DNA from: Clostridiales bacterium
GTDB taxonomy: Bacteria > Bacillota > Clostridia > Christensenellales > Aristaeellaceae
NCBI GenBank assembly: GCA_017569285.1
Contig: CP069419.1
Location: forward strand, 496,001-560,000
Length of the DNA stretch: 64,000 nucleotides
Direction of reading: 5' to 3'
Shown here piece after piece: positions 49,444-64,000 of this stretch. A program made the translations under genes and the position numbers. Every line of letters begins with the position of its first letter. The stretch's first letter is position 1. The notes below the pieces were generated by a model that did no database searches, had not been told where the DNA came from, and saw only the letters and a program-made list of their open reading frames with translations.

Positions 49444-50262
49444 TTATTCCCCCTTTCCGGTTTTCCGGCTGCTCCGCTGCCCGTAGGCCGACGGAGGCGG
49501 GCCGTTTTTCGCGTTGTGTTCAAAATCCTGCAGCGGGATCATGCCGAGCGTGGTCAGTCCGCCCACCTTGGCGATATCCTCCGTGGTGAGGATCCGATCA
49601 TCGCTGAAGTGCTTGATGGCGATGATCGCCATGGCTAGCAGGGCACCAAGCAGGAAACCGATGATCACGGTCCGGGGTTTCTGCGGGCTCACCGGCTTGT
49701 CGGGCAGGCGGGCTTCCTCAAACATGTTCGGCTCGCGCATGTCCATCTTGGCCGCGATGAATTCCCGGGCCACCTGGGCGTAGGTATCGGCAAGCAGCTT
49801 GGCTTCCCGCGGATCCGGGGATTTGATCTGCACATACAGCACGTGGGTATTGCTCGGGTTGGATACGCTCAGCATGCTGGACAGTTTTGAATATGAGTAA
49901 TTCAGGTTCAGGCGCTTGTCCACCAGTTCATGCACATGCCAGTTCTTGAACACTTCCTGGTAGTCGGCCGCCAGGTTTGTGCCGATCTGCAGGTCGCTCA
50001 GGGAGATGGCGGTATCGGAGCCAACGATATAGATCTTGGCCGTCGCCTGGTAGATTGGGGTCACCGCGTATTGCACGTAACCAAACGCGATAGCCGCACC
50101 CAGGATGGCGGTCAGGAGGATCCAGTGGATTTTTTCGAGGAAGTGCAGCGCCAGCTCCGCCAGGTCGATCTCAAATACATCATCATTTTCCTTGGCGGGA
50201 GCGGCCGCCTGGGCGGCCGGCGCCTGTACTTTTTTCACTTCGTTGGTCTCGTTTCTTGCCAT
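49444..50262 (-). CDS. cpsC: CpsC/Wzz-type chain length regulator and kinase activator
   Basis: A 272-residue membrane protein with two helices (HWILLTAILGAAIAFGYVQY near residue 50; RTVIIGFLLGALLAMAIIAI near residue 205). Between them is a 130-residue extracytoplasmic Wzz domain (YQATAKIYIVGSDTAISLSD and LLADTYAQVAREFIAAKMDM). PDKPVSPQKPRTVIIG is the conserved Pro-rich segment before the second helix. The N-terminus is cytoplasmic, with an Ala/Pro-rich part. It overlaps the loaP stop by 28 nt and is 3 nt from cpsD. Confidence 0.93.
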   Translation of the reverse strand: MARNETNEVKKVQAPAAQAAAPAKENDDVFEIDLAELALHFLEKIHWILLTAILGAAIAFGYVQYAVTPIYQATAKIYIVGSDTAISLSDLQIGTNLAADYQEVFKNWHVHELVDKRLNLNYSYSKLSSMLSVSNPSNTHVLYVQIKSPDPREAKLLADTYAQVAREFIAAKMDMREPNMFEEARLPDKPVSPQKPRTVIIGFLLGALLAMAIIAIKHFSDDRILTTEDIAKVGGLTTLGMIPLQDFEHNAKNGPPPSAYGQRSSRKTGKGE

Positions 50263-50798
50263 CCGGCATCTCCTTCCGTTCTTCGGGGGAAAACAGCCGC
50301 CGGTTCATCCGGCGACACAATTTCATATTCCACCCATGTTTTCACCAGCATTTTGGCAAAGGGAACCTCAATCTGCATTCGGCGTGCCCGGTGGTCCACC
50401 TTGCGGATGACAGCGTCCAGGCCGGAGAAGGCTCCTTCCGTCAGCCGGATCCGTTGGTCCTTCTCGTAGACCGGCGTTTTGCCGATCACGCCGTTCATCT
50501 GCAGGATCATCAGGGCAAATGTTTCGTCGCTTCCCGTGAGCATGTAGTCCTGTTCCGATGTCTTCAGGCACCGGAGCACGCCCGGGATGTAGCGGCACTG
50601 GGATATGTCCGTGGGTTCTTCGCAGTAAAGGAACAGGTACCCGGGAAGCAGGTCCCGGGGGCGGTCCACCATCTTTCCGTTCTGCCAGGTGTGCTGGATC
50701 TGCCGCGGCGAAATCACCAGGCATCCCAGCCGTTGTGTTACCTCGTGTGCCACATAGCGGCATTTGGCCGTTTCGCAGAAGAGGCAGTATGTGTACAT
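50235..50798 (-). CDS. loaP: LoaP/NusG-like transcription antiterminator
   Basis: A 187-residue NusG paralogue from the ATG at 50798, with AGGAGG 7 nt upstream; a longer ORF to 50894 is rejected. The NGN domain has MYTYCLFCETAKCRYVAHEV and RDLLPGYLFLYCEEPTDISQ, and the KOW domain is IRLTEGAFSGLDAVIRKVDH. LoaP proteins of Firmicutes sit at the front of long biosynthetic operons and load on RNA polymerase at a leader RNA hairpin so that it reads through internal terminators. Here it is first in a 26-kb polysaccharide operon, as expected. It is behind a 5' leader of about 210 nt. Confidence 0.9.
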   Translation of the reverse strand: MYTYCLFCETAKCRYVAHEVTQRLGCLVISPRQIQHTWQNGKMVDRPRDLLPGYLFLYCEEPTDISQCRYIPGVLRCLKTSEQDYMLTGSDETFALMILQMNGVIGKTPVYEKDQRIRLTEGAFSGLDAVIRKVDHRARRMQIEVPFAKMLVKTWVEYEIVSPDEPAAVFPRRTEGDAGWQETRPTK

Positions 50799-51010
50799 CT
50801 CCGTTCCTCCTGAAAAGCATAGCTCCGCTGCGGGCGGCGGATTTCCCCGTCGTCCTTCCTGAAAACACACGTAAACGGAACGGCTGTCCGGCAAGTGTCA
50901 TCGGTCCAGCTTCACCGTCCGTGGATACCCCGGCGCTGGCGGAAAGCTTCCCTGCCTTTCCTGTTTTCTGATCACTCGGATTTCCGTGCTTGTAACCCAA
51001 TCCATATCAA
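50799..51010 (-). promoter_or_regulatory. 5' leader of the polysaccharide operon, likely structured
   Basis: About 210 nt between the promoter and loaP contain no convincing coding frame but several GC-rich pairing segments, for example GGAAAG with CTTTCC (about 50941-50966) and GCCGGGG/CCGGAC blocks near 50880-50935. The layout suits a LoaP loading site or another RNA regulator. I could not match it to a named riboswitch by eye. Confidence 0.45.
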
Positions 51011-52249: not shown

Positions 52250-52285
52250 TGCGGGTGCCCTTTCGGGCACCCGCATTGTTGTTTT
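52250..52285 (+). terminator. Intrinsic terminator of the oxidoreductase gene
   Basis: A perfect 11-bp stem (52250-52260 with 52265-52275) with a TTTC loop is followed by TTGTTGTTTT. It lies 22 bp upstream of the convergent stop at 52297 and may serve both strands. Confidence 0.88.
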
Positions 52286-52296
52286 GGGTCTGTTGT

Positions 52297-52965
52297 TCAG
52301 TTGAATACCGCGCCGCATTCCTCGGTCAGTTTCACCGGATCCAGGAAACTGAAGTTTTTGTGCAGCAGCTGCTCCCGGCGGTACACGGCGTCCATCACGG
52401 TTTCGCCTTTCCAGGAGGCAGTGACGCGGACCTCGCTCACTGGCAGGCAGGCCAGCAGGTCCCGGGCGATGCGGACGCCCATGGCGGAGAGGTACTGCTT
52501 CGCGTTCTTCTCCATGTGCTCGTCCTTGCCGGTAAACATCGCCTCCAGGCGGTCCGGATCCGGCGCGCGCATGCTGATGCCGTGGGCGTACTCCATCAGT
52601 TCACCCAACGGGTTTGCCTTCCGCAGGACTTCCGTATAGGCGGTCAGGTCGCCGTTCAGCACCGCTTCCGCATGCTGATGGTAAAACTCCCACAGGTGCT
52701 GGGGGGTCAGTCCGTCCGTCGGCCATTCATGGGCCAGGGCATCGGTCCATTCAATCGTTTCATCCGCGGTCATCCACAGATTTTCGATGCCGATCTTCGG
52801 CTTTTTGACAACCACCTTGGCCGGTTTCGCTTCCTGCTTCTTCGGTTCGGGAACCACATCCTCCGGCGGTTCCCGCCACAAGTCAGACGCGATGGCCTTC
52901 ATGCGCCGCAGCAGTTCGCTGGCGTCGGCGGGGGACATGTTGTTTCCCTTGTTTTCGTCTGCCAT
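52297..52965 (-). CDS. Protein of unknown function coupled to a ClpB-like ATPase
   Basis: A 222-residue soluble protein that I do not recognise. Residues 1-30 are helical, and 35-60 are a charged Lys/Pro/Glu-rich linker (EPKKQEAKPAKVVVKKPKIG). The rest is helical with many Trp, Asp and Glu residues (WMTADETIEWTDALAHEWPT; LWEFYHQHAEAVLNGDLTAY) and ends RREQLLHKNFSFLDPVKLTE. No signal peptide or membrane segment. Its start overlaps the ATPase stop as TAATG, so the two are made together and it may be an adaptor or substrate for the ATPase (inference). Last gene of the CotH-VTC operon. Confidence 0.75.
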   Translation of the reverse strand: MADENKGNNMSPADASELLRRMKAIASDLWREPPEDVVPEPKKQEAKPAKVVVKKPKIGIENLWMTADETIEWTDALAHEWPTDGLTPQHLWEFYHQHAEAVLNGDLTAYTEVLRKANPLGELMEYAHGISMRAPDPDRLEAMFTGKDEHMEKNAKQYLSAMGVRIARDLLACLPVSEVRVTASWKGETVMDAVYRREQLLHKNFSFLDPVKLTEECGAVFN

Positions 52966-54851
52966 TACGCGTCCTCTCCTTCCCTGCGGCAGCGTACACT
53001 CGGCGGATTGGCCGCCGTGTCGAATCCCTCGATGACAATCTTCGCGTCGCCGGTAATCTCATTGTCAAACAGCCAGCGGCTGAGGGGGTTGATCAGCAGG
53101 CTTTCCACCTGGTTACCGATACCCCGGCCGCCGTTGGACAGGTCGAAGGTGGCCGCTTCCTCCAGGCTCTTGTAAGCGAAGTCCTCGATGCGGATGGAGA
53201 TGTTCTTCTGTTCCCGCAGGTTCCGGGTAATCTTGTTCACCTGGGCCTGGAGGATCAGGTCGGCTGCTTCCTTGCGGATATAGTCGAACACCACGATGTT
53301 TTCGCCAATCCGGTTCAGGATCTCCGGCCGTCCCAGTTCCAGCTTGAAGTAGTCCTCAATCGCGCTGCGCACGCGGGCCTGCACTTCGGAATACGGCATA
53401 TCCATGGTCACATTGGGCTCACGGTTGCCGAAGGCATCCTTGACGTAGATGCCCAGGTTGCTGGTGAAGATGATGATCGTTTCGGAGAAATACACCGTAT
53501 TCCCCTGCCCGTCCGTCATGCGGCCGTCTTCCAGGATCTGCAGGAATTTATCCAGGATCGTGGAATGGGCTTTTTCAATTTCATCAAACAGCAGGATACA
53601 GAAGGGGTTCTTCTTCACCGCGTTGGTCAGCTGGCCGCCCGCTTCATACCCGACGTATCCGGGAGGTGCGCCCATCAGCTTCTGGTCGGAATGGCTCTGG
53701 CCGTATTCGCTCATGTCGAACCGGATACAGGTGCTCTCGTCACCGAACAGTTTCTCTGCCAGCGCTTTGGCCGTCTCGGTCTTTCCGGTACCGGTCGGGC
53801 CGGCAAAGAACAGCACGCCCTTCGGCTTTCCGGTGGAGGAGGAGTTCAGTCCGTTCATGCCGGTCACTGCGCGCTTGACCACGTCCAGCGTGCGTTCCAG
53901 CGCGGTGTCCTGCCCCTTGATCCGCTTTTCAAAGTCCGCCTTGGCGGTCTTCAGGCTCCTGACGCTCAGTGTGCTCCAGGGGTTTTCCTTGATGCCGTAT
54001 TTGTACAGGTCCACAATGGAACAGAGGTCGCGGATTGGCGTTTCTTCCTTTTTGCACAGCATCCGCATTTCGTCCAGTTCCGTGAAGGTCATGCCCTCGG
54101 TCAAGCCGACAAACCGTTCCTTGATCCGCTCCAGGTCCTCCGGATATTCCGTGTAGTACGGCATATCCCGCCGGTAGACGGTGCCGGAGAAGAAGGACGC
54201 GAAGTTCGTCCCGGTCATCATGCGCTTCCGTTCCTCGCGGTCCGGCGCTTCCAGCTGCAGGATCTTGCACACCGGGTTGTTCAGGTAGAACCACGCCGGC
54301 AGGTCGTTCAGCTTGTTCACCAGCAGGATCAGCAGGTTCTGCTTCTTCCCGTGGGCAGTGCGGACCCAGGAGGCGCTCAGCGCGCTCTGCATCAGGATGT
54401 TGAAGCTGTTCACGTCCGCCTGGTCCATCCGTTCCGGGGTGGTGATGTAGTGGCTGGCCATCTCCATGATGGTCACCGTGGCCGCCTTCTGCTGGGACAT
54501 GGCCCGGCGGATGACGTTCGGCGCGGTGTTGGCGCCGTTTCCCTTGAACTCCGCCTGGACCGCGCCGGACCTGACCTCCGTGTCCGTCAGGTTGGCAAAC
54601 CGTTCCAGCATGGAGGGGTCATAGGGGCTCATAAAGCCCAGCAGGTTGCTGTAGAACAGCACCTGGTCATATCCCTGGTCGGAAAAATAGGCATGCAGGT
54701 AGCGGCTCAGCGGGATGATCTCGTCCTGCCGGACGGATCCGTCCACCGGATACCGGTACTGGTCGGTGATGTTCCCTTCCAGGATCAGCAGGGGTTTGAT
54801 CGCGCTGAACAGTTCCAGCTCCCTGTGCCATTTCGGAATCAATGCTTCCAC
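52965..54851 (-). CDS. ClpB/ClpA-like AAA+ ATPase with degenerate N-terminal ATPase domain
   Basis: A 628-residue cytoplasmic protein with a GTG start at 54851 (AAGGAG upstream). The C-terminal part is a Clp/Hsp100 D2 module: Walker A GPTGTGKTE (351-359), pore loop GYVGYE near 400, Walker B CILLFDEIEKAH near 418-429, sensor 1 FTSN near 462, arginine finger context LGRPEILNRIGEN near 505, and sensor 2 GGRGIGNQVES. Residues 1-290 look like a decayed AAA domain: LLILEGNITDQY, NLLILLVNKLNDLP and LEAPDREERKRMM are placed as in the AAA core, but there is no Walker A. Lacks a ClpP-binding loop as far as I can see. Role here probably remodelling. Confidence 0.88.
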   Translation of the reverse strand: MEALIPKWHRELELFSAIKPLLILEGNITDQYRYPVDGSVRQDEIIPLSRYLHAYFSDQGYDQVLFYSNLLGFMSPYDPSMLERFANLTDTEVRSGAVQAEFKGNGANTAPNVIRRAMSQQKAATVTIMEMASHYITTPERMDQADVNSFNILMQSALSASWVRTAHGKKQNLLILLVNKLNDLPAWFYLNNPVCKILQLEAPDREERKRMMTGTNFASFFSGTVYRRDMPYYTEYPEDLERIKERFVGLTEGMTFTELDEMRMLCKKEETPIRDLCSIVDLYKYGIKENPWSTLSVRSLKTAKADFEKRIKGQDTALERTLDVVKRAVTGMNGLNSSSTGKPKGVLFFAGPTGTGKTETAKALAEKLFGDESTCIRFDMSEYGQSHSDQKLMGAPPGYVGYEAGGQLTNAVKKNPFCILLFDEIEKAHSTILDKFLQILEDGRMTDGQGNTVYFSETIIIFTSNLGIYVKDAFGNREPNVTMDMPYSEVQARVRSAIEDYFKLELGRPEILNRIGENIVVFDYIRKEAADLILQAQVNKITRNLREQKNISIRIEDFAYKSLEEAATFDLSNGGRGIGNQVESLLINPLSRWLFDNEITGDAKIVIEGFDTAANPPSVRCRREGEDA

Positions 54852-54867
54852 ACCTGGTCCTCTCCTT

Positions 54868-56049
54868 TTATCTGTTGTTTCTGTCCGGGTACGCCTTCGG
54901 CGCCTCCGGCGAACCGTCCGTGTTCCGTTTCACGGCTTTCCCCGTGCCGGAAGGAAGATACGGCATCACCAGCCGGGCATATCCGGTTTCATCGTCACCG
55001 ACGACCGACATGATCGTATCCGGGGTGTCATACGCCATGGCGTCCAGGACGGCCTCCGCCTGTTCCGCCGGTATCCGCAGCGGCTGGTAGTTGTTCACCG
55101 GCGCTTCGGAGCTGGTATACCCGGGATACAGGATCATCTGCTGCCCGGTATAATTGCCGTCATCGTCAAAATAAAGCTTGGCCTGCACCACCAGGCAGTA
55201 CAGGGAGGTCGGTTCCCGGCCCCCGTCCCGCGGATAGAGCACGGATTTGATTTCCCGGTTCCCGCCAAAGACAAAGTTTCCCAGTGAGTAGAAAATCGAC
55301 CGGTTGTCCAGGATCCGCATGCCCTGCACCACATGGGAGTGGTGCATCACCACCACGTCCGCGCCGGCTTCCACAAACGCTTTTCCCCGGCTTTCCTGCA
55401 CGGAATTGTGTTTCGGGTCGTATTCGTTGCCGTTGTGGAACAGGACGACGGTTGCGTTCACCTCGCCCGCCGTTTCCATGTCCGCCATTTTCTTCCGCAT
55501 CCGGTCTCCGATGGTGTTCGACAGCGCATAGTCCATCGAGAAAACAGCGATCCGGATCCCGTCCTTTTCCAGGATATGGTAATCCATTCCCCGGGCCCAG
55601 CCGATCCCGGCATCTTCCAGGGCTTTTTGGGTGCTTTCCATTCCCCGGGCACCGAAGTCGGAGGTGTGGTTATTGGCCAGCCCGGCCACCTCCACCGACC
55701 CGGCCTTCAGGATGCCGGTGAAATCCACCGGCCCGCGGAAGCGGTACCGCTTGGAGGTCTTTTCCCCGTTCGCGCTGTCCGAAAAAACGCCCTCCAGGTT
55801 GATGATCGTGGCATCGTCCGCCTCAAACATTTCCCGGAAGTTGGCAAAAAAATAGTCATACCCGTATTTTTCGGCATACGCGTGCAGGGAGTCCTCCTGC
55901 GTCCGCCGCGCTTCCTCGCTGCCGATCGTGCAGTCCCCCGTGAATGTCAGGGTGATCACGCGGTCTGCATATGCGCTGCCGGATGCCAGGCACACCGCTG
56001 CGAAAACGGCGGCCGCCAGGCGCCGGATGGTCTTGCTTCCAGGTTTCAT
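54868..56049 (-). CDS. CapA-like metallophosphatase-fold secreted protein
   Basis: A 393-residue protein with a signal peptide (cleavage after SAYA near residue 28) and a CapA/PgsA-type calcineurin-like fold: LTFTGDCTIGSEE, TIINLEGVFSD, VAGLANNHTSDFGARG, VVLFHNGNEYDP and VVVMHHSHVVQGMRILDNRS are the metal-site blocks. In the poly-gamma-glutamate system CapA is a membrane-anchored part of export, but no capB or capC synthase is near. Here it is instead between a VTC polymerase gene and an AAA+ gene. Its position suggests a role in processing or exporting an anionic polymer made by the operon (inference). Confidence 0.9.
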   Translation of the reverse strand: MKPGSKTIRRLAAAVFAAVCLASGSAYADRVITLTFTGDCTIGSEEARRTQEDSLHAYAEKYGYDYFFANFREMFEADDATIINLEGVFSDSANGEKTSKRYRFRGPVDFTGILKAGSVEVAGLANNHTSDFGARGMESTQKALEDAGIGWARGMDYHILEKDGIRIAVFSMDYALSNTIGDRMRKKMADMETAGEVNATVVLFHNGNEYDPKHNSVQESRGKAFVEAGADVVVMHHSHVVQGMRILDNRSIFYSLGNFVFGGNREIKSVLYPRDGGREPTSLYCLVVQAKLYFDDDGNYTGQQMILYPGYTSSEAPVNNYQPLRIPAEQAEAVLDAMAYDTPDTIMSVVGDDETGYARLVMPYLPSGTGKAVKRNTDGSPEAPKAYPDRNNR

Positions 56050-56070
56050 CTGCGATCCTCTCTCCGGTCC

Positions 56071-56784
56071 TTATTCTTCCCCGAACCCTTCAAAGCGCCT
56101 GCACCAGGTATATTTGCTGATGGCGCTGGGGCATGCGCCCTGGCAGTAGGTTCCCAGGATATCCCGGATGTAGGACGGCAGGCTGTGGTTGTATTTCACT
56201 TCCAGGATGATCTCGTTGTTGTTGAACGGGGGGATCGTCGGCACATAGGGGTCGAACAGTTCCTTGCTGTACAGCCCGGTGCGCAGCTGTTTGTCAAATG
56301 TGATCCGGACCTCTTCCGCGGGATGCAGGTATGCTTCCCGCACATAGTCCACCAGCACCACCGGCCGCAGCAGGTTCACCGTCATTTCCCGGTACATGTC
56401 GTTCAGCAGTCCGCTCCGGGTCGTCTCCAGCCCGGTCGGATCGCCGGCCATCAGCTGCTCGCACAGCAGCCGCGGGATGCTGATGCTCCGCTTGGAAATC
56501 AGGGTTCCGACCTTGGTTTTGCACTCCAGCTTGATCACCTTGTCGCTGAAGTTGTAAATCCGGATCCGGTACTTGTCGCGGTTCTGCACGCCGTTCAGCT
56601 TGTCGAACAGCGCGTTGTTGAACGCCGTGTCAAAGTACAGGGAGCGGATATGGTATTCGTTGTATTCGTCGCCGTTTGGATCGCGGGAAAGAATCGAATC
56701 CAGTACGCCGGACAGCACGAAATACTGCCGTTCATTGATGAAATACTTCAGTTCATGCCGGAGCGGCAGTGAATTCATGGCCAT
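56071..56784 (-). CDS. VTC-domain polyphosphate polymerase
   Basis: A 237-residue protein covering the VTC catalytic domain alone. RHELKYFINERQYFVLSG is the first basic strand and YHIRSLYFDTAFNNALFDKL, DKYRIRIYNFSDKVIKLECK and TKVGTLISKRSISI line the tunnel with Lys and Arg residues that bind polyphosphate. Yeast Vtc4 makes polyphosphate from ATP with this fold, and bacterial homologues are often coupled to DUF4956 and CotH proteins. No SPX domain is present. It is likely active on the cytoplasmic side, with the DUF4956 protein as its membrane partner (inference). Confidence 0.9.
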   Translation of the reverse strand: MAMNSLPLRHELKYFINERQYFVLSGVLDSILSRDPNGDEYNEYHIRSLYFDTAFNNALFDKLNGVQNRDKYRIRIYNFSDKVIKLECKTKVGTLISKRSISIPRLLCEQLMAGDPTGLETTRSGLLNDMYREMTVNLLRPVVLVDYVREAYLHPAEEVRITFDKQLRTGLYSKELFDPYVPTIPPFNNNEIILEVKYNHSLPSYIRDILGTYCQGACPSAISKYTWCRRFEGFGEE

Positions 56785-56835
56785 GGTTCTTCCCCCTTTC
56801 CCTGGTTTTCTTCCTGGATTTCAGCTTCGGGATGG

Positions 56836-57543
56836 TCAGGCGCCGGCTTCGGTCTGGCAGGCGACCAGCGTCGCGTCATGGACGCCTTCAATGTTCAGCA
56901 CCGCGCTCACCAGGTCCTGCTTGCTGTCCAGCCGGACTTCGACGGTCATCTCCGCGCCCGCGCGGGTGACAGTCTTGCTGCGCAGGCGGCGCTGCTTCAC
57001 GGTCCGCCGCAGCAGCTGGGTGATCTCGGTTTCGGCGTAGTCGTCATAGTGGACCACCAGCAGGTAGCTGTTGGGGTTCCGGAAGCGTACGAAGGTCATC
57101 ACAAACAGGATGATGCTGATGCCCAGCACCACCACCAGCGCGTGGATGTACAGCTCCGCGCCCAGCAGGATGCCCATCGTCAGCGCCCAGAACATGTAGG
57201 CCGTATCCATCGGATCCTTCACGGCCGTCCGGAAACGAACAATACTCAGCGCGCCAACCATGCCCATGCTCAGCGCGATATCGCTCTTGATGCACATGAC
57301 CACCGGGGTGGTAATCAGCGTCAGCATCATCAGCGTCAGCGCGAAGGTCGGGCTGTAGAGCACGCCCCGGTAGCACCGCTTGTAGACAAAGGCGATCACC
57401 AGGCCGACAATGCATCCCATGATCAGGCCGATGATGATCTTCCACGGCGTCAGGTTTTCAAACTGGCTCAGGAAGTAATCGCTCAGGCTTGCGTCATTCT
57501 TGACGATGGAACTGGCACTCGCAAAGGCTGTGGAAATGAACAT
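56836..57543 (-). CDS. DUF4956 membrane protein
   Basis: A 235-residue protein with three or four helices (IIIGLIMGCIVGLVIAFVYK; GVLYSPTFALTLMMLTLITT; MAYMF-type segment ALTMGILLGAELYIHALVVV; VLGISIILFVMTFV) and a C-terminal cytoplasmic domain of about 85 residues (NSYLLVVHYDDYAETEITQL to AVLNIEGVHDATLVACQTEA). The sequence GALSIVRFRTAVKDPMDTAY is a conserved DUF4956 block. The family is usually beside VTC and CotH genes and is thought to make the channel or anchor for VTC. AGGAGGA lies 8 nt before the ATG. Confidence 0.9.
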   Translation of the reverse strand: MFISTAFASASSIVKNDASLSDYFLSQFENLTPWKIIIGLIMGCIVGLVIAFVYKRCYRGVLYSPTFALTLMMLTLITTPVVMCIKSDIALSMGMVGALSIVRFRTAVKDPMDTAYMFWALTMGILLGAELYIHALVVVLGISIILFVMTFVRFRNPNSYLLVVHYDDYAETEITQLLRRTVKQRRLRSKTVTRAGAEMTVEVRLDSKQDLVSAVLNIEGVHDATLVACQTEAGA

Positions 57544-57594
57544 GGCTTGTCTCCTCCTGTATGATGTTCCGGGTATCCGGTATGGTTCGGGAAA

Positions 57595-60500
57595 TCAGAT
57601 TGCGTCCGGCGGCATCTCCGGTCTCGGTCCGAAGTATTTTACCATTTCCGCGTCCGTCAGGTTGAAAGCGTCCTGGGCAAACCCCCACAGTTTGTTCGGC
57701 CGTTTCCGGCAGACATTCCGCAGGCGCTCCACGCGCTTCTCCCAGTACCGGTAGGCGCCGTCCGAGGTGACCGGCACGTCGCTGATGACCATCTTGTCGT
57801 TTTCCTCGCCCCAGCGGGCCCAGTGGTTCTTCATTTCCGGTTCGATGATCTTGACCGTGTCGTCCAGGATTTCCAGCATCTTCCGGGTGGTCAGTTTCTG
57901 GAAGATCTCCCCGAATTTGGTCAGGTAGCGTTCCTTGTATTCCGGTACGCTCAGCAGCTTCATGAAAATGGTGTTGTCGATATATTTCTGGCCCATGCCC
58001 TTGGCCTTGGTGTAGCTCCACGGGCTGTTGAAGTCCGAGGTGTACAGGCCGTAATCCACGTCGTACAGGATCCAGCGCCATTTGCTTCCCTCCGTTTTCA
58101 GCCGGTAGAAGCGGGTGTTGCCGATATCGCTGTTGCCGAAGAACATCTCGAACGCCATGTATTCGAACAGGTTGTCCACGTCCACATTGTCCAGGATGTA
58201 CTGCAGGTCTTCCGGGTTCTTGGCGGGATTCCCGGCCTTCATCTTCTTGATCATGGCCTTGAATTCCTTGTTGGACCCGTACTTCACGCTGCCGCTGCCC
58301 TGGAGCAGGTCCATCTGGTCCGCGTCTTCCAGGGAGAGGCCTTCAAACTGGGCAATCATGAACCGGTCGGTCCGTTCACGCAGGTTCATGTGCCCCCAGT
58401 AAATCCCGTTCAGGTAGACCGCGTACGGTTCCCAGGCCTGGTGGGCAATCGTGGCCCCGCAGAAGTCCATCAGCTTGCCCTGGAATCCGTCCTGCATGCG
58501 GGTGAACATGCTGTCGTTCCCGCTGTTCCGCAGGACGAAGCCCTTGTATTCCGTATAGAGCCGGTCTTCAAACAGCTTGGCCTGGAACGTCTTCGCGCCG
58601 TAAACGCTCCGGGCGCGGAATTTGAAGCTTTTCTGCGGCATATCCAGGGAATAGTCGCCCATCAGGCCGATCTCGGCCCCCTGGCTCAGCAGGGTGTTGC
58701 CGCTCCGGTCGAACAGTTCCACATGGCAGTCATATTTGATGCCCTTGTCCTTCACCTTCCGGTATACGGTGTTCGGGAAAGGCAGCTTGCCGGGTTCCTT
58801 AATGGCATCCTTCCCGATCGTCAGCATGCCCCATTCCTCATCCCAGAGGTTGTTCGGGTCGGTCACCACGGACGCCACCGGCAGGGCATGGTAGACGTTG
58901 ACAAACCAGGTGCCGGTCAGGATCTCGCTGGGCTGCGTAAGCCCCGTGGAAAAAGCCCGTGCGCGCAGGACGTTCGCATACTGGTTCAGCTCCAGCCGCG
59001 TTCCCGCCGTGTACGGGGTGGACGCCTGCGTCGGGACGGATCCGTCCGTCGTGTAGAACACCTGGGTGCCTTCCGGAACCAGGATCTCCACATACTGGGT
59101 GGTGTAATACAGCCCCGGTTCCACACTGAAGGAGGGGGTGGAGGCAAAGCCGCTGAAGCCGGTTCCGTTTGCCCGGAACGGAGTCGGCGTCTCATAATAA
59201 AAAAGCCCTGCGATCCCCAGGGTCCGGCCGTATGAAATATCCGTCTTCATCTCCGGCAGTACAATCTTGTCCAGTACATTCCCGGCCGGGTCCGCCAGGG
59301 TGATGATCTCGCCGGCATTCCGGCCGATCCGGAAAGAGGTATGCGGCTCGGCGGCCGACGCCTTCGCGGTATTCCCGTCGCAGAGGATCACCTTGTATTC
59401 CCCGGGGGCAATCAGGGTGCCGGCCGGAAACTGCCATTTCCGTCCGCGTCCCAGGTTGTCGCTCAGTCCCCACCCGGAGATATCCACCGCCGTGTCGGAG
59501 GAATTGTAGATTTCCACCCAGTCCTTGTTCTCCGTGCCCGCGTAGGTGGACACCTGGTTGTTGCTGGCCAGCACTTCGCTGATCCAGACCCCGGTCCGGT
59601 TCATCGCCCGCAGGTTCAGGTCCATCTGGTTGAAGCCGGCTTCGTTGTCCGGCAGGGTGGGCGTCGGCATCTGGAACACCTGCATCTGGTTCTGCTCATT
59701 CCGTCCCCAGCTGCAGTCCTGCGGCAGGTTGTCAATCATCACCCGGTCCACAACCCGGCCCTGGCTGTCCGCCAGGATGATCGTTTCCTTCTCCGCGCTG
59801 ATCCGGAAGTTCGAGTGCGGAACACGTTCCATTTTGGTATCCATCCGGTCCTTGCCGGTGCACAGCACCAGGTAGTATCCGTGTGCCTCGATCCTCGCGC
59901 CGTCCGGGAAGCGCCACTTCAGCGGTTTCCCTTCATTGTCGCTCAGTGCGAACTTGTCCAGGCTGATCGCGTTTCCGGTGGTATTGTACAGCTCAATCCA
60001 GTCGCACAGTTCACCGTCGTCATCGCGGATGCCGGTCAGCGGGTCCGCCATCACTTCGTTGATGAGCACGGAGCCGTCCGCCGCGGTAACGCTCTCGCGG
60101 TAAGCCAGGTGGCCGGCTTCGGTATTTTCAAAGCCGGGGCTGAACCAGGCGGTGGACGTATACTCCCCGCCGGTCAGGGCCCAGCTTTCGTCACTGCCGA
60201 TAATTTTATATGTGACGCTGTCAATCAGGTAGGCATTCGGGTCGAACAGGTAAACGGTCTCACCGACGCTGCTCAGCTGGAATTTCGCGTGGAAAGGCCG
60301 GTCCGGGCTCGCCTGGTTGGTATTGTCGCAGAATACCGTCACCCGGCCGTCCTGCTCCAGGCTGATGGCGGGGAACAGGAAACGGATCCGGTCTCCCTTG
60401 TCGCTCAGGCCGACGCCCTCCAGGTTAATCCGGTGGTCGGTGCTGTTCCATACTTCCAGCCAGTCCGGGAATTTTCCATTCTCGTCTGTAACGGCTGTCG

Positions 60501-60792
60501 CGTTCGCAGGCATCACTTCGCTGATGACCAGCCCGGCATATTCGCCGACGCGCTCGTCGCCCGTGCTTTCCACCAGGCCGGATTCCGTTCCGGCGGAATA
60601 GGTCGCCCGGCGGAGCGGCTCAAAGAGATAGCTGCCGGTCATCCATTTCGGGACTTCAAAAATCAGCAGCAGCAGGGCAGCCACCGCACCCGCGAGCAGG
60701 AGGAAATTCATGCGCTGTTTCCTCCGGCGGAGTTTGGTTGCCCGGGAAGCCGTACGGCGTCCCTGTTCCGGGTTTCCGGTCCTGTTTTCCAT
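57595..60792 (-). CDS. Extracytoplasmic CotH-kinase-fold protein with lamin-tail domains
   Basis: A 1,065-residue protein from the ATG at 60792 (AAGGAGGG 6 nt upstream; a 7-codon longer ORF crosses this site). A single N-terminal membrane helix (MNFLLLAGAVAALLLLIFEV) is preceded by Arg/Lys, so the rest is outside. Three lamin-tail domains follow (GLVISEVMPANATAVTDENG; VLINEVMADPLTGIRDDDGE; VWISEVLASNNQVSTYAGTE), then a chitobiase C-terminal-like module (VFYTTDGSVPTQASTPYTAG) and a CotH domain of about 400 residues (KSFKFRARSVYGAKTFQAKL; GFVLRNSGNDSMFTRMQDGF; WRWILYDVDYGLYTSDFN). CotH proteins are atypical kinases that phosphorylate spore-coat and other secreted proteins. Confidence 0.9.
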   Translation of the reverse strand: MENRTGNPEQGRRTASRATKLRRRKQRMNFLLLAGAVAALLLLIFEVPKWMTGSYLFEPLRRATYSAGTESGLVESTGDERVGEYAGLVISEVMPANATAVTDENGKFPDWLEVWNSTDHRINLEGVGLSDKGDRIRFLFPAISLEQDGRVTVFCDNTNQASPDRPFHAKFQLSSVGETVYLFDPNAYLIDSVTYKIIGSDESWALTGGEYTSTAWFSPGFENTEAGHLAYRESVTAADGSVLINEVMADPLTGIRDDDGELCDWIELYNTTGNAISLDKFALSDNEGKPLKWRFPDGARIEAHGYYLVLCTGKDRMDTKMERVPHSNFRISAEKETIILADSQGRVVDRVMIDNLPQDCSWGRNEQNQMQVFQMPTPTLPDNEAGFNQMDLNLRAMNRTGVWISEVLASNNQVSTYAGTENKDWVEIYNSSDTAVDISGWGLSDNLGRGRKWQFPAGTLIAPGEYKVILCDGNTAKASAAEPHTSFRIGRNAGEIITLADPAGNVLDKIVLPEMKTDISYGRTLGIAGLFYYETPTPFRANGTGFSGFASTPSFSVEPGLYYTTQYVEILVPEGTQVFYTTDGSVPTQASTPYTAGTRLELNQYANVLRARAFSTGLTQPSEILTGTWFVNVYHALPVASVVTDPNNLWDEEWGMLTIGKDAIKEPGKLPFPNTVYRKVKDKGIKYDCHVELFDRSGNTLLSQGAEIGLMGDYSLDMPQKSFKFRARSVYGAKTFQAKLFEDRLYTEYKGFVLRNSGNDSMFTRMQDGFQGKLMDFCGATIAHQAWEPYAVYLNGIYWGHMNLRERTDRFMIAQFEGLSLEDADQMDLLQGSGSVKYGSNKEFKAMIKKMKAGNPAKNPEDLQYILDNVDVDNLFEYMAFEMFFGNSDIGNTRFYRLKTEGSKWRWILYDVDYGLYTSDFNSPWSYTKAKGMGQKYIDNTIFMKLLSVPEYKERYLTKFGEIFQKLTTRKMLEILDDTVKIIEPEMKNHWARWGEENDKMVISDVPVTSDGAYRYWEKRVERLRNVCRKRPNKLWGFAQDAFNLTDAEMVKYFGPRPEMPPDAI

Positions 60793-60830
60793 CGGCTTCC
60801 CTCCTTCCTGCATTGTATGCTAACTTTGAA

Positions 60831-60859
60831 ATTATACCATACTTCTCCCGGATGTGCAA
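60831..60859 (-). promoter_or_regulatory. Promoter of the CotH-VTC operon
   Basis: On the minus strand TTGCAC (60854-60859) and a consensus TATAAT (60831-60836) are separated by 17 bp, 39 bp upstream of the ATG at 60792. Confidence 0.78.
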
Positions 60860-60880
60860 ACCCGGCCTGCTTTTTGCATT

Positions 60881-63800
60881 TTACTCAAACAACCGCCGGA
60901 TATCCTGTTCGCTCAGCGCGCCCAGGGCGGATTCTCCCGGGGTGATCAGCCGGTCAAACAGCGCTTTCTTGCGCGTCCCGAGCTCCACCACCTGCTCCTC
61001 AATGCTCTCGCCGGTCACCAGGCGGATCACCTGGACCTTGTGCTTCTGGCCGATGCGGTGGGCCCGGTCGGTAGCCTGGTCCTCGGTGGCCGGGTTCCAC
61101 CACGGGTCATAGTGGATCACCAGGTCCGCGCCGGTCAGGTTCAGGCCGGACCCGCCGGCCCGCAGGCTGATCAGGAACACCTGTCCCTCCCCGGCGTTGA
61201 ACCGTTCCGTCAGGCTCAGCCGGTCCCCGGCCGGGGTTTCCCCGTCCAGGTACATGGTGGAAAAGCCCTGCTCCTCCAGCCGGCGGCGCAGGATCTTCAG
61301 CATGCTCGTAAACTGGCTGAACAGCAGGATCCGCCGCCCGCTCCCGATCATGCCGGGAAGCACCTCCAGCAGCAGTTCCTCTTTGCCGCTTCCGCCCCGG
61401 TATTCATTCATGATCAGGGACGGATGGCAGCAGATCTGCCGCAGCTCCGTGATGGCGCTCAGCACCTCCATGCGGCCCTGCTGGATGCCCTTGGCTTCAA
61501 TAATATTGTTCACCTTCGGCCGCAGCCGCTCCAGGGCCGCCCGGTAAATCCGGTTCTGCTCCGGCGTCATCTGCGCGGTCAGGGTGATTTCCATCTTCTC
61601 CGGCAGTTCTTCCAACACGTCCTGCTTCAGCCGCCGGGTCAGGAACGGCCGGATCCGCCGCAGCAGGTCCTCCGCGTTCTCCCCGTCCTGGTATTTCCGC
61701 AGGAAGGTGTTGTAGCCGGGCAGGTAGCCGGGCAGCACAAAATCAAACAGGCTCCACAGCTCCCCGATTCCGTTCTCCATGGGAGTACCGGTGAGGGCAA
61801 ACCGGGTGTCGCCGCGCAGCTGTTTGGCTGCCTGGGCCGCCACGCTGCCCGCGTTCTTGATATTCTGGGCTTCATCCAGGATCAGGTACCGGAACGGGAT
61901 ATCCTTCAGCAGGTCGATATCCCGGCGGATCAGCGGATAGCTGGTGATGGCGATATCCACGTCCCCGTGCTCGGCAATGTGCCGGATCATCCCGGCGCGC
62001 TGCGCACCGGTGCCGTTCAGGATCACCGCGCTCATCTCCGGCGCGAAACGGCGGATCTCGCTCAGCCAGTTGTAGGTCAGCGACGTCGGGGCGACCACCA
62101 GGCTGGTGCGGCCGGTTTCCCGGGTAGCCTGCAGCAGGGCGATTACCTGGACTGTTTTTCCCAGTCCCATATCGTCCGCCAGGATCCCACCCATGTGCAT
62201 GCGGTCCAGGGCATACATCCACTCATACCCGCGCATCTGGTAATCCCGCAGCGTCAGCCCGGGCGCCAGGGCAGGCGCCTGGATTCCCTGTTCCCCGTTC
62301 ATCAGGGTCTCCGACATACGGCGGACGCTCTCGTCCGTTTCAATCGGGATTCCGCTGTTCTCCAGCATGCTGGCCAGGTAAGCCGCCCGATAGGCCCGCA
62401 GGGTGATCACGTCCCGCTCGGGTTCGCTCCCGTCGCGCACCGCCGCCTCATAGATCCCGGCGGCGGCTTCCTCCCAGTCCCCGAGGCTGCTCAGGTCCAG
62501 GAACTCCCCGCTCTTCAGCCGGAAATAGCGCCGCCTCCGGCTCAGCGCTTCGATGAGGTCCAGCAGTTCCTCCACCGGTTCGCCGTCCTTCAGCAGCATC
62601 AGCTCCAGCTTTTCCCCGTTCATTCGGATACTGCCGCTCAGCACCGGCCTCCGGGGCATAATGCGCCGGAAATCCCGGCTGAGGAATACCTCGCTGACCT
62701 CCTGCAGTTTTTTGACGCCCTCGCTGACAAAGCCAAACACTTCGTCGTTCCCGCTCAGGCGGATATTGTCCTTCCGGACGCGGAATCCCGCGTTCGCCAG
62801 GATCTCCAGCACCAGGTGCTCTCCCTCGGCATCCCGCAGCAGCAGCTTTTCGCCCTTGTCCAGGGCGATTTTCTTCTCCACCGGGGCAAACGGGTTCAGC
62901 ACCACGTCGCCGTAATGGAACTGGATGGAAGCCGTAACGCTCTTCCCGTCCCGGTCCAGGTAAACTTCCGTCCGCAGCGGCATCCGGATCAGCCGCTGCC
63001 GCAGGTCCCCGCTGATTTCCACGGCGCCACGCAGTTTGAGGTACGGCAGCACCTCCCCGATCACCCGGTCGGTTTCCTCCAGCGGATAATCGAACAGGCA
63101 CCTTCCTTCATACTGGTTTTTCCAGATCAGCAGGATCAGCTCCCGCTGGTTCTCCTCGGTCCGGATCAGGTTGCCGCCGGTCACCACCCAGGCGCAGTCT
63201 TCAGTTACCGGCAGCAGGTCTGCCGGCATCCGGGCCGCGGTCCGCAGCCCCCTCGGCCCGAGACTCATCTCAAACTGCAGGGCGATCGGTGCCCGCCGGA
63301 TCTGGCGGCAGCGGATCACCTTTCCGTTGCTGTCCATAATCCGCAGCGCCGTTTCCCCGATACGCTCCAGGATTTCCCGGGTAAACGGATCGGGCAGGTG
63401 CACCAGCCGGGCGCCCGAGCCGGTCCGCTCCCCTTCCCGGCCGGCAAACAGCTTCCGCAGCACGTCCAGCACTCGCATATCATCCCGGGAAAAGCGCATC
63501 CATTCCGGCTGCCAGGTAAATTCCTTGCCGAACGCCAGCGTTTCCCCGGCATCGACAGCATTCAGGAACGCCCGGATATCCCGCACGACGTAAAGCTTGT
63601 TTTCGCCGGCGCGGAGTCCGATCCGTACCTCCTGCCCCGGCTTCTGGGGCAGCACCAGCGTCACTTCCAGCCGGACGTTCGGCTCGGAAGGCATCTGGCG
63701 CAGGATCAGGTCGGTCAGCCCGGCCGCGTTCCGGGGCGCGTTCTTCTTCAGCATGGCTTCCGGAATCCCCGCCCGTTCGGCAGCCAGCCATGCCGCCACC

Positions 63801-64000
63801 GCGTGCCGGCAGCACCCCCGCTGGGTAAACAGTTCGCAGTCGCAGTGCAGTACGAGGCTCCGTCCCAGCGTCACGGTCCGGGGCGGTTTCCCGGCAACGG
63901 TATACCGCACCATGGCGCTGTCCTGATCGCTGACGCGGACGCTGCCTGCCTCCTCCAGTTCCTTTCCGGCGGCGAATTCCTCGGCGCCGGCCAGCCGTTC
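60881..64000 (-). CDS. SWIM-domain SNF2-family helicase (5' end outside window)
   Basis: The frame is open to the window edge, so the N-terminus is missing. At least 1,039 residues are present. A SWIM zinc finger comes first (LHCDCELFTQRGCCRHAVAA, C-x-C-x7-C-x-H-like near 63820-63850). A long bacterial SNF2 accessory region follows, then the helicase core: ILADDMGLGKTVQVIALLQA (motif I), LDEAQNIKNAGS (motif II), ALTGTPMENGIGELWSLFDF (motif III), and the C-terminal lobe with LLFSQFTSMLKILRRRLEEQ and ATDRAHRIGQKHKVQVIRLV (motif VI). It is a DNA-dependent ATPase that remodels protein-nucleic-acid complexes. The CotH operon promoter begins just past its stop. Confidence 0.93.
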   Translation of the reverse strand, partial: ERLAGAEEFAAGKELEEAGSVRVSDQDSAMVRYTVAGKPPRTVTLGRSLVLHCDCELFTQRGCCRHAVAAWLAAERAGIPEAMLKKNAPRNAAGLTDLILRQMPSEPNVRLEVTLVLPQKPGQEVRIGLRAGENKLYVVRDIRAFLNAVDAGETLAFGKEFTWQPEWMRFSRDDMRVLDVLRKLFAGREGERTGSGARLVHLPDPFTREILERIGETALRIMDSNGKVIRCRQIRRAPIALQFEMSLGPRGLRTAARMPADLLPVTEDCAWVVTGGNLIRTEENQRELILLIWKNQYEGRCLFDYPLEETDRVIGEVLPYLKLRGAVEISGDLRQRLIRMPLRTEVYLDRDGKSVTASIQFHYGDVVLNPFAPVEKKIALDKGEKLLLRDAEGEHLVLEILANAGFRVRKDNIRLSGNDEVFGFVSEGVKKLQEVSEVFLSRDFRRIMPRRPVLSGSIRMNGEKLELMLLKDGEPVEELLDLIEALSRRRRYFRLKSGEFLDLSSLGDWEEAAAGIYEAAVRDGSEPERDVITLRAYRAAYLASMLENSGIPIETDESVRRMSETLMNGEQGIQAPALAPGLTLRDYQMRGYEWMYALDRMHMGGILADDMGLGKTVQVIALLQATRETGRTSLVVAPTSLTYNWLSEIRRFAPEMSAVILNGTGAQRAGMIRHIAEHGDVDIAITSYPLIRRDIDLLKDIPFRYLILDEAQNIKNAGSVAAQAAKQLRGDTRFALTGTPMENGIGELWSLFDFVLPGYLPGYNTFLRKYQDGENAEDLLRRIRPFLTRRLKQDVLEELPEKMEITLTAQMTPEQNRIYRAALERLRPKVNNIIEAKGIQQGRMEVLSAITELRQICCHPSLIMNEYRGGSGKEELLLEVLPGMIGSGRRILLFSQFTSMLKILRRRLEEQGFSTMYLDGETPAGDRLSLTERFNAGEGQVFLISLRAGGSGLNLTGADLVIHYDPWWNPATEDQATDRAHRIGQKHKVQVIRLVTGESIEEQVVELGTRKKALFDRLITPGESALGALSEQDIRRLFE

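What the first reader, a model, noticed from the sequence alone, without database searches (positions are those of the whole stretch)
52297..60859. CotH, DUF4956, VTC, CapA, Clp-like ATPase and an unknown protein form one operon
Six minus-strand genes follow one strong promoter (60831-60859) with gaps of 16-51 nt and a TAATG overlap at the end. The set joins a polyphosphate polymerase (VTC), its likely membrane partner (DUF4956), an extracytoplasmic atypical kinase of the CotH type, a CapA-fold metallophosphatase, a Hsp100-type ATPase with a decayed N-terminal ATPase domain and an unrecognised 222-residue protein. The VTC-DUF4956-CotH link is known from other genomes. The addition of CapA, the AAA+ protein and the small protein is not one I know. 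It suggests a machine that makes, exports or attaches a phosphate polymer, or phosphorylates surface proteins with it.
Basis: partly seen in the sequence, partly recalled or inferred. Interest (0 to 1): 0.75.

Follow-up and report, generated by a model that had tools for sequence, protein, structure and literature searches.

The report
Phosphate-polymer operon carrying a borrowed unfoldase
A bacterium's genes for making and handling what looks like a phosphate polymer at its surface are joined, across its genus, by two genes for a protein-remodelling machine whose relatives belong to an apparently undescribed signalling cluster; what the combination does is not yet known.

Summary
The six-gene operon is real: ORFs, 16-51 nt gaps, TAATG overlap, promoter and closing hairpin are there, and an extended -10 signal precedes cotH in 25 of 27 genus loci. 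CotH-DUF4956-VTC is a known, family-wide trio. CapA is not fixed: in 38 genus loci the slot behind VTC holds CapA (17), a PIG-L-type protein (5), nothing (13), an opposite-strand gene (1) or could not be read (2). The AAA+ gene and the 222-residue gene (X) form a separate module: alone in 12 genomes of other genera; in the window's genus behind VTC on the same strand in 35 of 36 readable loci, without a promoter-like signal of its own in those 35. X is a relative of the C-terminal domain of DUF4236 proteins. The AAA+ family otherwise sits in a recurring, apparently undescribed cluster (radical-SAM activase, FHA, coiled coil, kinase, PP2C); one such cluster also encodes a DUF4236-X protein. Most likely the operon makes and handles an envelope phosphate polymer, with AAA-X recruited to remodel or control its cytosolic machinery; contact between the two modules is inferred only. 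A 'decayed ATPase' N-domain is unproven: a profile test of limited power found nothing.

The parts
60831..60860 (-). promoter of the operon: TTTGCA-18 nt-TATAAT with TG before the -10 (TGGTATAAT)
   Evidence: an extended -10 lies upstream of or at the start of cotH in 25 of 27 genus loci vs 0 of 540 control stretches inside cotH
57595..60813 (-). CotH-type atypical kinase: one N-terminal hydrophobic segment, three LTD stretches, CHB_HEX domain, C-terminal CotH domain; likely start 60792
   Evidence: CotH 1.4e-31; one hydrophobic segment 33-58; N195 and D197 of the aligned slice invariant in 9 of 9
56836..57543 (-). DUF4956 membrane protein with several hydrophobic segments and a soluble C-terminal part
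   Evidence: (PF16316 1.3e-12)
56071..56784 (-). VTC-type polyphosphate polymerase domain protein, no hydrophobic segment, charged tunnel positions kept
   Evidence: PF09359 7.5e-34; R73, R75, K89, R149, R160, E195, K197, S223, K224 invariant in 11 of 11; profile matches Vtc4 3g3q, 1.8e-12
54868..56049 (-). CapA/PgsA-type (PGA_cap) protein with a signal-peptide-like N-terminus (by eye); occupant of a variable slot
   Evidence: 4.8e-46; 8gq9 2.4e-6
52965..54851 (-). AAA+ protein: ~295-residue N-domain of unknown fold without Walker A, then one Hsp100 (ClpB/ClpC D2-type) ATPase domain; GTG start
52297..52965 (-). X: 222-aa protein, variable N-terminus plus a conserved domain (about residues 60-222) shared with the C-terminal part of DUF4236 proteins
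52250..52275 (-). terminator-like hairpin after X, shared with the convergent oxidoreductase gene; T run loose on this strand
   Evidence: 18 terminator-like sites in the region vs 9.5 expected

Best explanation
One transcription unit joins two modules of different origin. Module 1 (CotH-DUF4956-VTC, with an exchangeable, probably secreted enzyme such as CapA or a PIG-L-type deacetylase) is an envelope phosphate-polymer pathway. VTC in the cytosol polymerises phosphate from ATP. DUF4956 is its membrane partner and probable exit path, as the Vtc1 membrane part is for yeast Vtc4 (recalled). CotH, anchored in the membrane with its kinase domain outside, and the slot enzyme act on the surface polymer or on proteins carrying it. 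Module 2 (AAA-X) is a cytosolic Hsp100-type unfoldase with one recognisable ATPase domain, a special N-domain, and X as its client-recognition or adaptor protein. It is kin to a phospho-signalling cluster (kinase, PP2C, FHA, radical-SAM activase). In the ancestry of this genus it came to lie behind VTC, without a promoter of its own, under the cotH promoter, so that its level is tied to the pathway. There it most likely remodels, clears or gates the VTC-DUF4956 machinery or its polymer-bound proteins. Shown by computation: operon order, modularity, conservation, absence of a promoter-like signal before AAA, kinship, kept VTC charged positions. Inferred: direction of the move, polymer identity, export, topology, the adaptor role of X, and any AAA-VTC contact.
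For: Genes and signals. VTC and DUF4956 each in 117 of 120 family genomes, lacking in the same three. CotH-DUF4956-VTC in 13 of 20 VTC regions fetched. VTC charged positions invariant in 11 of 11 and the profile matches Vtc4. Exchangeable slot: 17 CapA, 5 PIG-L, 13 empty, 1 opposite-strand gene, 2 unreadable of 38. AAA with X adjacent in 17 of 18 X-bearing family genomes. Same-strand VTC..AAA in 35 of 36 readable genus loci. Extended -10 before cotH 25 of 27 vs 0 of 540. Extended -10 directly before AAA in 0 of 35 joined loci, in both genus loci with an opposite-strand gene in front of AAA, and in 7 of 12 stand-alone loci. The window's gene beyond X is kept in 2 of 34 loci, so the block is not just general synteny. 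Signalling-cluster kin; X domain in a full cluster at L266; tree. D2 matches Clp D2 (2.7e-65), with no counterpart of the template's mGFG stretch.
Against: AAA-X has no VTC neighbour in the 12 non-genus loci, so its basic job does not need VTC. In L246 and L247, the deepest of the six genus rows in the tree, an opposite-strand gene lies in front of AAA, which has its own promoter-like signal. The direction of the move is not proven: genus and stand-alone proteins are sister groups with moderate support (84/80 and 92/96). The own genome also has a PP_kinase (PPK1-type) gene, so VTC is not the sole candidate polyphosphate maker. In print the trio is linked to Pel polysaccharide (PMC7112168), so the product could be something else. 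The VTC part with ExK and SK aligns to Vtc4 only weakly (second stretch, not significant alone). Both structure models were poor. No solved-structure sequence match for the CotH domain. Nothing here is experimental.
Confidence: 0.5

Rival explanations
1. AAA-X is a functionally independent passenger. It was inserted behind VTC and kept there because the cotH promoter suits its expression; it remodels targets unrelated to the envelope polymer, as in the other genera.
For: Stand-alone pair in 12 genomes of other genera, grouping together (92/96). VTC is in 117 of 120 family genomes while X is in 18 of 120. Opposite-strand gene in front of AAA and own promoter-like signal in L246 and L247.
Against: Joined on the same strand in 35 of 36 readable genus loci without a promoter-like signal of its own, while the window's next gene downstream is kept in 2 of 34.
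Confidence: 0.3
2. The operon serves a surface polysaccharide rather than polyphosphate: the trio is an accessory set for glycan export or modification (as beside Pel loci), the CapA or PIG-L slot enzyme processes that glycan, and AAA-X controls the synthase.
For: CotH, poly-phosphate polymerase and DUF4956 lie contiguous with pelDEADAFG in streptococci and clostridia (PMC7112168, passages). The slot holds a PGA_cap or a GlcNAc-PI-de-N-acetylase-type protein. A Wzz/GNVR protein lies about 2 kb beyond X.
Against: No polysaccharide synthase lies inside the unit; its immediate neighbours are an SNF2 gene and an oxidoreductase. VTC keeps the charged positions expected of a polymerase. Pel genes were not searched for.
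Confidence: 0.3
3. Co-location by shared ancestry alone: synteny in a young genus, without any functional link.
For: All operon members of the 120-genome sample belong to one genus. SNF2, which seems to have its own place, is also kept upstream in 27 of 29 loci.
Against: Window's downstream neighbour kept in 2 of 34 loci, downstream picks in 16 groups, variable cotH upstream spacing and a changing slot show that order is not frozen.
Confidence: 0.1

Closest known systems
CotH / poly-phosphate polymerase / DUF4956 accessory genes of Gram-positive Pel loci (PMC7112168)
   Same: The same three protein types, contiguous
   Different: No pel genes among the immediate neighbours read (not searched genome-wide); CapA or PIG-L slot and AAA-X added; three LTD stretches on CotH
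Yeast VTC complex (Vtc4 polymerase with Vtc1 membrane part)
   Same: VTC domain with corresponding charged positions; VTC and DUF4956 absent or present together in 120 of 120 family genomes
   Different: No SPX hit; no relation of DUF4956 to Vtc1 was tested or is known to me; activity and export untested
Hsp100 unfoldases ClpB/ClpC
   Same: D2-type AAA+ domain with Walker A, Walker B and GYVGY pore loop; RPEhLNRI motif in most
   Different: Only one recognisable AAA domain, a ~295-aa N-domain of its own, no Clp N domain hit, no counterpart of the Clp template's mGFG stretch
MoxR-vWA and FtsH ternary conflict systems (PMC7159879)
   Same: AAA+ protein with clustered partner genes; radical-SAM or kinase/PP2C partners occur in some of that paper's systems (passages)
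   Different: No MoxR or vWA protein recognised here; partners are FHA, PP2C, kinase, radical-SAM activase and a coiled coil; Hsp100-type D2
DUF4236 proteins
   Same: C-terminal domain of 4 aligned DUF4236 proteins and of the L266 protein is homologous to X
   Different: X itself lacks the DUF4236 N-terminus

Membership tests
VTC-type polyphosphate polymerase | VTC domain above the curated cut-off | tested here: met
   PF09359 117.7 bits vs 23
VTC-type polyphosphate polymerase | Charged tunnel residues aligned to Vtc4 | tested here: met
   RxR, K, R and R positions invariant in 11 of 11 and aligned to 3g3q in the significant stretch; ExK and SK are invariant too but align to 3g3q only in a second, weak stretch; their catalytic role is recalled
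VTC-type polyphosphate polymerase | Makes polyphosphate from ATP | not testable with these tools
   needs enzymology
CotH kinase | CotH domain above cut-off, with conserved N/D positions | tested here: met
   110.6 bits vs 23.8; N195 and D197 of the slice invariant in 9 of 9; catalytic role recalled
CotH kinase | Kinase activity | not testable with these tools
   needs enzymology; no solved-structure sequence match
Pel accessory gene group | Contiguity with pelDEADAFG | not tested
   no polysaccharide synthase among the immediate neighbours read; pel genes were not searched for
ClpB (disaggregase) | Two active AAA domains, NCBIfam ClpB cut-off | tested here: not met
   259 bits vs cut-off 1232, D2 part only; exactly one Walker A in 18 of 19 cluster homologues, the nineteenth (L269) cut off by its contig end
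ClpA/ClpC (ClpP partner) | ClpP-binding tripeptide loop | tested here: not met
   profile alignment with 9 Clp proteins shows no counterpart of their mGFG stretch; that this stretch is the ClpP loop is recalled
   no Walker A; hhalign 0.8% to Clp D1 and 0.2% to Clp D2; D2 against D2 gave 100%, but the family's D2 against Clp D1, true AAA relatives, only 43%, so the test has limited power
CapA/PgsA | PGA_cap domain above cut-off | tested here: met
   157.7 bits vs 27
DUF4236 C-terminal domain family (X) | Significant similarity to the C-terminal part of DUF4236 proteins | tested here: met
   HMM 7e-45 and blastp 3e-26 to the L266 protein, whose N-terminus matches a DUF4236 HMM built here (1e-24); not seen for the L188 DUF4236 protein (hhalign 0.24%)
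MoxR-vWA ternary conflict system | MoxR AAA+ plus vWA protein | tested here: not met
   no vWA hit among the operon proteins or the 14 cluster proteins scanned with Pfam, and D2 matches Hsp100

The most novel reading that the evidence does not exclude
A polyphosphate-coupled Hsp100. VTC makes polyphosphate, a known holder of unfolded proteins (recalled), and AAA-X is a dedicated unfoldase that recognises polyphosphate-bound or phosphorylated clients through X and the new N-domain. Elsewhere the same AAA family would work as the effector of a kinase/PP2C/FHA/radical-SAM signalling system. The genus would have swapped a phospho-signal input for a polyphosphate input by placing two genes behind VTC.
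Probability: 0.15. Interest if true: 0.8.

Novelty: new variant of a known kind. Interest (0 to 1): 0.55.

Why it matters
Bacterial VTC and DUF4956 genes are little studied: DUF4956 is named in 3 papers of the open-access library searched. This operon gives a natural experiment: an unfoldase module that is free in other genera of the family is wired to the trio's promoter in one genus, so the trio's cytosolic side can be probed through it. It also exposes a recurring, apparently undescribed cluster (Hsp100-type AAA+, radical-SAM activase, FHA, coiled coil, kinase, PP2C, once with DUF4236-X) whose purpose is unknown, and it gives a context to the DUF4236 C-terminal domain.

Tried and rejected
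Viral relatives of the AAA N-domain and of X: none. Sequence matches to solved structures: none meaningful for X (37), the N-domain (38), VTC alone (39; profile works, 76), CotH (40, 82) or DUF4956 (42). An X-like C-terminus in the L188 DUF4236 protein looked plausible by eye but has no support. PADLOC: the operon AAA matched PDC-M37B (3.4e-30), DolB (1.9e-21) and weaker models, only over its AAA core, so no defence label was taken from it. CapA in L043: absent; a PIG-L protein sits there instead. Idea that VTC replaces PPK: rejected, PF02503 is in the own genome and in 80 of 120 family genomes. SNF2 as first operon gene: rejected as a fixed part; it is upstream in 27 of 29 loci with room, but cotH has its own promoter signal and the spacing varies from overlapping to over 3 kb.
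Full report
OBSERVATION. The six ORFs, their gaps (51, 51, 21, 16 nt, then a 1-nt overlap) and the promoter are as described. Pfam supports five of the six names; the sixth protein has no Pfam or NCBIfam hit at E <= 1. A hairpin at 52275-52250 (11 pairs, 9 G-C, loose T run on this strand) closes the unit, opposite a convergent oxidoreductase gene. Consensus scans alone are weak: 7 promoter-like sites against 3.1 expected, 18 terminator-like against 9.5. The likely CotH start is 60792, behind an AGGAGG (read). The window lies in a 3.27-Mb genome in two contigs. The nearest named record is a goat-omasum Clostridia MAG whose X is 97% identical.

THE TRIO. VTC and DUF4956 are each present in 117 of 120 genomes of the family, and the same three low-completeness genomes lack both. 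Of 20 regions fetched around VTC genes (19 from other genomes, 1 the own genome's second copy), 13 hold CotH-DUF4956-VTC on one strand, 4 a divergent VTC-DUF4956 pair in reverse order, 2 DUF4956-VTC without CotH in view, and 1 DUF4956-VTC followed by a CotH gene. In none of the 20 was AAA or X seen (blastp at 1e-4). In print, CotH, a poly-phosphate polymerase, DUF4956 and DUF4832 are contiguous with pelDEADAFG in streptococci and clostridia (PMC7112168, passages read); VTC and CotH genes also lie together in a C. perfringens locus (PMC2879425, passages). Charged positions R73, R75, K89, R149, R160, E195, K197, S223 and K224 are invariant in an alignment of 11 divergent VTC proteins that includes the window's. 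The profile matches yeast Vtc4 (1.8e-12); the first five of these align in the significant stretch, the last four only in a second stretch that is not significant alone (catalytic roles recalled). Hydropathy gives CotH one N-terminal hydrophobic segment, DUF4956 several, and VTC, CapA, AAA and X none at the cut-off used; the CapA N-terminus looks like a signal peptide by eye.

THE SLOT BEHIND VTC. AAA is found in 39 of 45 genomes of the genus at E <= 1e-70, and in 13 of 13 of good quality. I read 38 loci: the window plus 37 others; the 39th genome, G516, has only a fragment and was not fetched. Between VTC and AAA lie CapA in 17 (by blastp to the window's CapA; Pfam checked in three others), a PIG-L-type protein in 5 (one of them, L239, with two further small genes), nothing (gap -64 to 56 nt by mechanical ORF calls) in 13, and an opposite-strand gene of about 3.1 kb in 1 (L247). 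In two (L246, L248) VTC is not on the piece. So CapA is an exchangeable extra; by their N-termini both occupants look secreted.

AAA-X IS A MODULE OF ITS OWN. In the family sample X is found in 18 of 120 genomes. In 17 of them a full-length AAA of at least 70% identity lies directly upstream; the eighteenth hit (G397) is a DUF4236 protein with no AAA in the 15.5 kb fetched. Five of the 17 belong to the window's genus and lie behind VTC. The other 12 carry the pair with no VTC, DUF4956 or LTD-CotH seen in the 11.8-19.5 kb fetched; one (L045) has a distant CotH gene about 5 kb away on the other strand. In a tree of 36 AAA proteins (12 stand-alone, 6 from the genus, 18 of the 19 cluster proteins) the AAA-X proteins form one clade (100/100), with the genus rows (84/80) and the stand-alone rows (92/96) as its two parts; nearest kin are the cluster proteins L170, L187 and L266 (some cluster rows have long branches). 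Which arrangement came first is therefore inferred, not shown.

JOINING THE OPERON. VTC and AAA are on the same strand with nothing or only same-strand genes between them in 35 of 36 readable genus loci. The window's gene beyond X is not kept: the oxidoreductase is there in 2 of 34 loci, and 33 downstream picks fall into 16 groups (mechanical ORF picks, so the group count is rough). SNF2 stays upstream in 27 of 29. An extended -10 (TGNTATAAT, at least 5 of 6) lies between the SNF2 end and 110 nt past the mechanical cotH start in 25 of 27 loci, against 0 of 540 stretches inside cotH; the misses are L238 and L241. The control is coding DNA and not matched in composition, so the contrast is partly one of base make-up. 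In the 200 nt before AAA the same signal is found in 7 of 12 stand-alone loci and in 2 of 37 genus loci. Those two are L246 and L247, where an opposite-strand gene lies in front of AAA. None of the 35 joined loci has it (L248 could not be judged; there the upstream DNA is largely coding). The simplest reading is that AAA-X depends on the cotH promoter in the joined loci.

WHERE AAA-X BELONGS ELSEWHERE. Using the N-domain alignment, 5 of 390 other genomes of the class and 12 of 397 other genomes of the phylum carry the AAA. With two paralogues in the family (L170, L171) this gives 19 loci. Within 8 kb and on the same strand, a radical-SAM activase-like gene is present in 19 of 19, a zinc-ribbon/FHA gene in 15, a coiled-coil protein in 13, a Ser/Thr kinase in 13 and a PP2C in 10 (domain names from Pfam on L170, L171 and others). 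The component HMMs were built from L170, L171 and L187-L190. On the 13 loci not used for them, the counts are 13, 9, 8, 8 and 7; four of these 13 (L273-L276) are near copies from one genus, and several loci are cut by contig ends. In L266, from another class, the order is kinase - coiled coil - FHA - radical SAM - AAA - PP2C - a DUF4236 protein whose C-terminal domain matches X (HMM 7e-45; blastp 3e-26, 28%). It is the only one of the 19 with an X match. L188 also has a DUF4236 gene near AAA, but its C-terminus shows no significant likeness to X. A class-wide search for X gave partial hits in 11 other genomes; three of these were fetched, and with the G397 protein they make four DUF4236 proteins that share the X domain. 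So X is a DUF4236 C-terminal domain without DUF4236, linked to this AAA family in two contexts. The 12 stand-alone loci hold none of the other cluster components beside the pair; L049 has one weak FHA hit about 6 kb away on the other strand.

THE AAA PROTEIN. It has one Hsp100 D2-type domain (100% probability, 2.7e-65, to D2 of 9 Clp proteins), with Walker A, Walker B and the GYVGY pore loop. The profile alignment shows no counterpart of the Clp template's mGFG stretch, so ClpP is an unlikely partner (loop assignment recalled). Of the 19 cluster homologues, 18 show exactly one Walker A; the nineteenth (L269) is cut off before it. The first ~295 residues have no Walker A and no significant profile likeness to Clp D1 or D2 (0.8% and 0.2%). 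The power of that test is limited: the family's D2 against Clp D1, true AAA relatives, reached only 43%. A decayed ATPase domain is therefore unproven rather than refuted.

MECHANISM AND LIMITS. The best-supported picture is an envelope phosphate-polymer pathway (trio plus slot enzyme) with a cytosolic unfoldase-adaptor pair placed under its control. The joining is shown; its direction and the contact between the two modules are inferred. The main rivals are an independent passenger and a polysaccharide-modifying role of the whole unit. The own genome has a PPK1-type gene too (PF02503), so VTC is not the sole candidate polyphosphate maker. AlphaFold2 models were too poor to use.

LITERATURE. 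No paper found describes AAA-X with CotH/VTC, or the kinase/PP2C/FHA/radical-SAM/AAA cluster (searches; open-access PMC only). The eLife conflict-system paper (PMC7159879, passages) describes, in the passages seen, different sets centred on MoxR-vWA or GTPases. PMC11677781 and PMC7821199 were seen as search listings with the start of the abstract only.

Noticed in passing
L170, L171, L187-L191, L266-L277: Recurring gene cluster: Hsp100-type AAA with the same N-domain, radical-SAM activase (19 of 19), FHA/zinc ribbon, MSGPK-type coiled coil, Ser/Thr kinase, PP2C; not found in print in the searches made.
   Followed up: partly
L170 (G501, 44-kb contig): The signalling cluster lies beside a large helicase/endonuclease gene that matches PADLOC models PDC-S37 (2.5e-251) and Hhe (5.5e-111), which may hint at a defence island.
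   Followed up: no
L172:7912-9051: The AAA N-domain (residues 2-223) occurs in a 379-aa frame that continues into a different sequence without the ATPase part; remnant or chimera.
   Followed up: no
L239:3917-4881: Two small genes between the PIG-L gene and AAA; one has an HPFxxGNGR motif of the Fic type (recalled), the other may be its antitoxin.
   Followed up: no
L246:4135-7041 and L247:6435-9548: Large genes on the strand opposite to AAA, in front of it, in two genus members; the L246 product looks like a repeat surface protein by eye.
   Followed up: no
window 60881-63913: SNF2-type helicase gene is upstream of cotH in 27 of 29 genus loci with room, at variable distance, and in 2 of 3 loci of genus g247.
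   Followed up: partly
window 49444-50894: Wzz/GNVR protein and a NusG-like frame (recalled likeness) suggest an exopolysaccharide gene set beyond the convergent oxidoreductase.
   Followed up: no
L150 (own genome C1:996000-1010000): A second, divergent VTC-DUF4956 pair in reverse gene order; the own genome has 8 CotH matches in all.
   Followed up: partly
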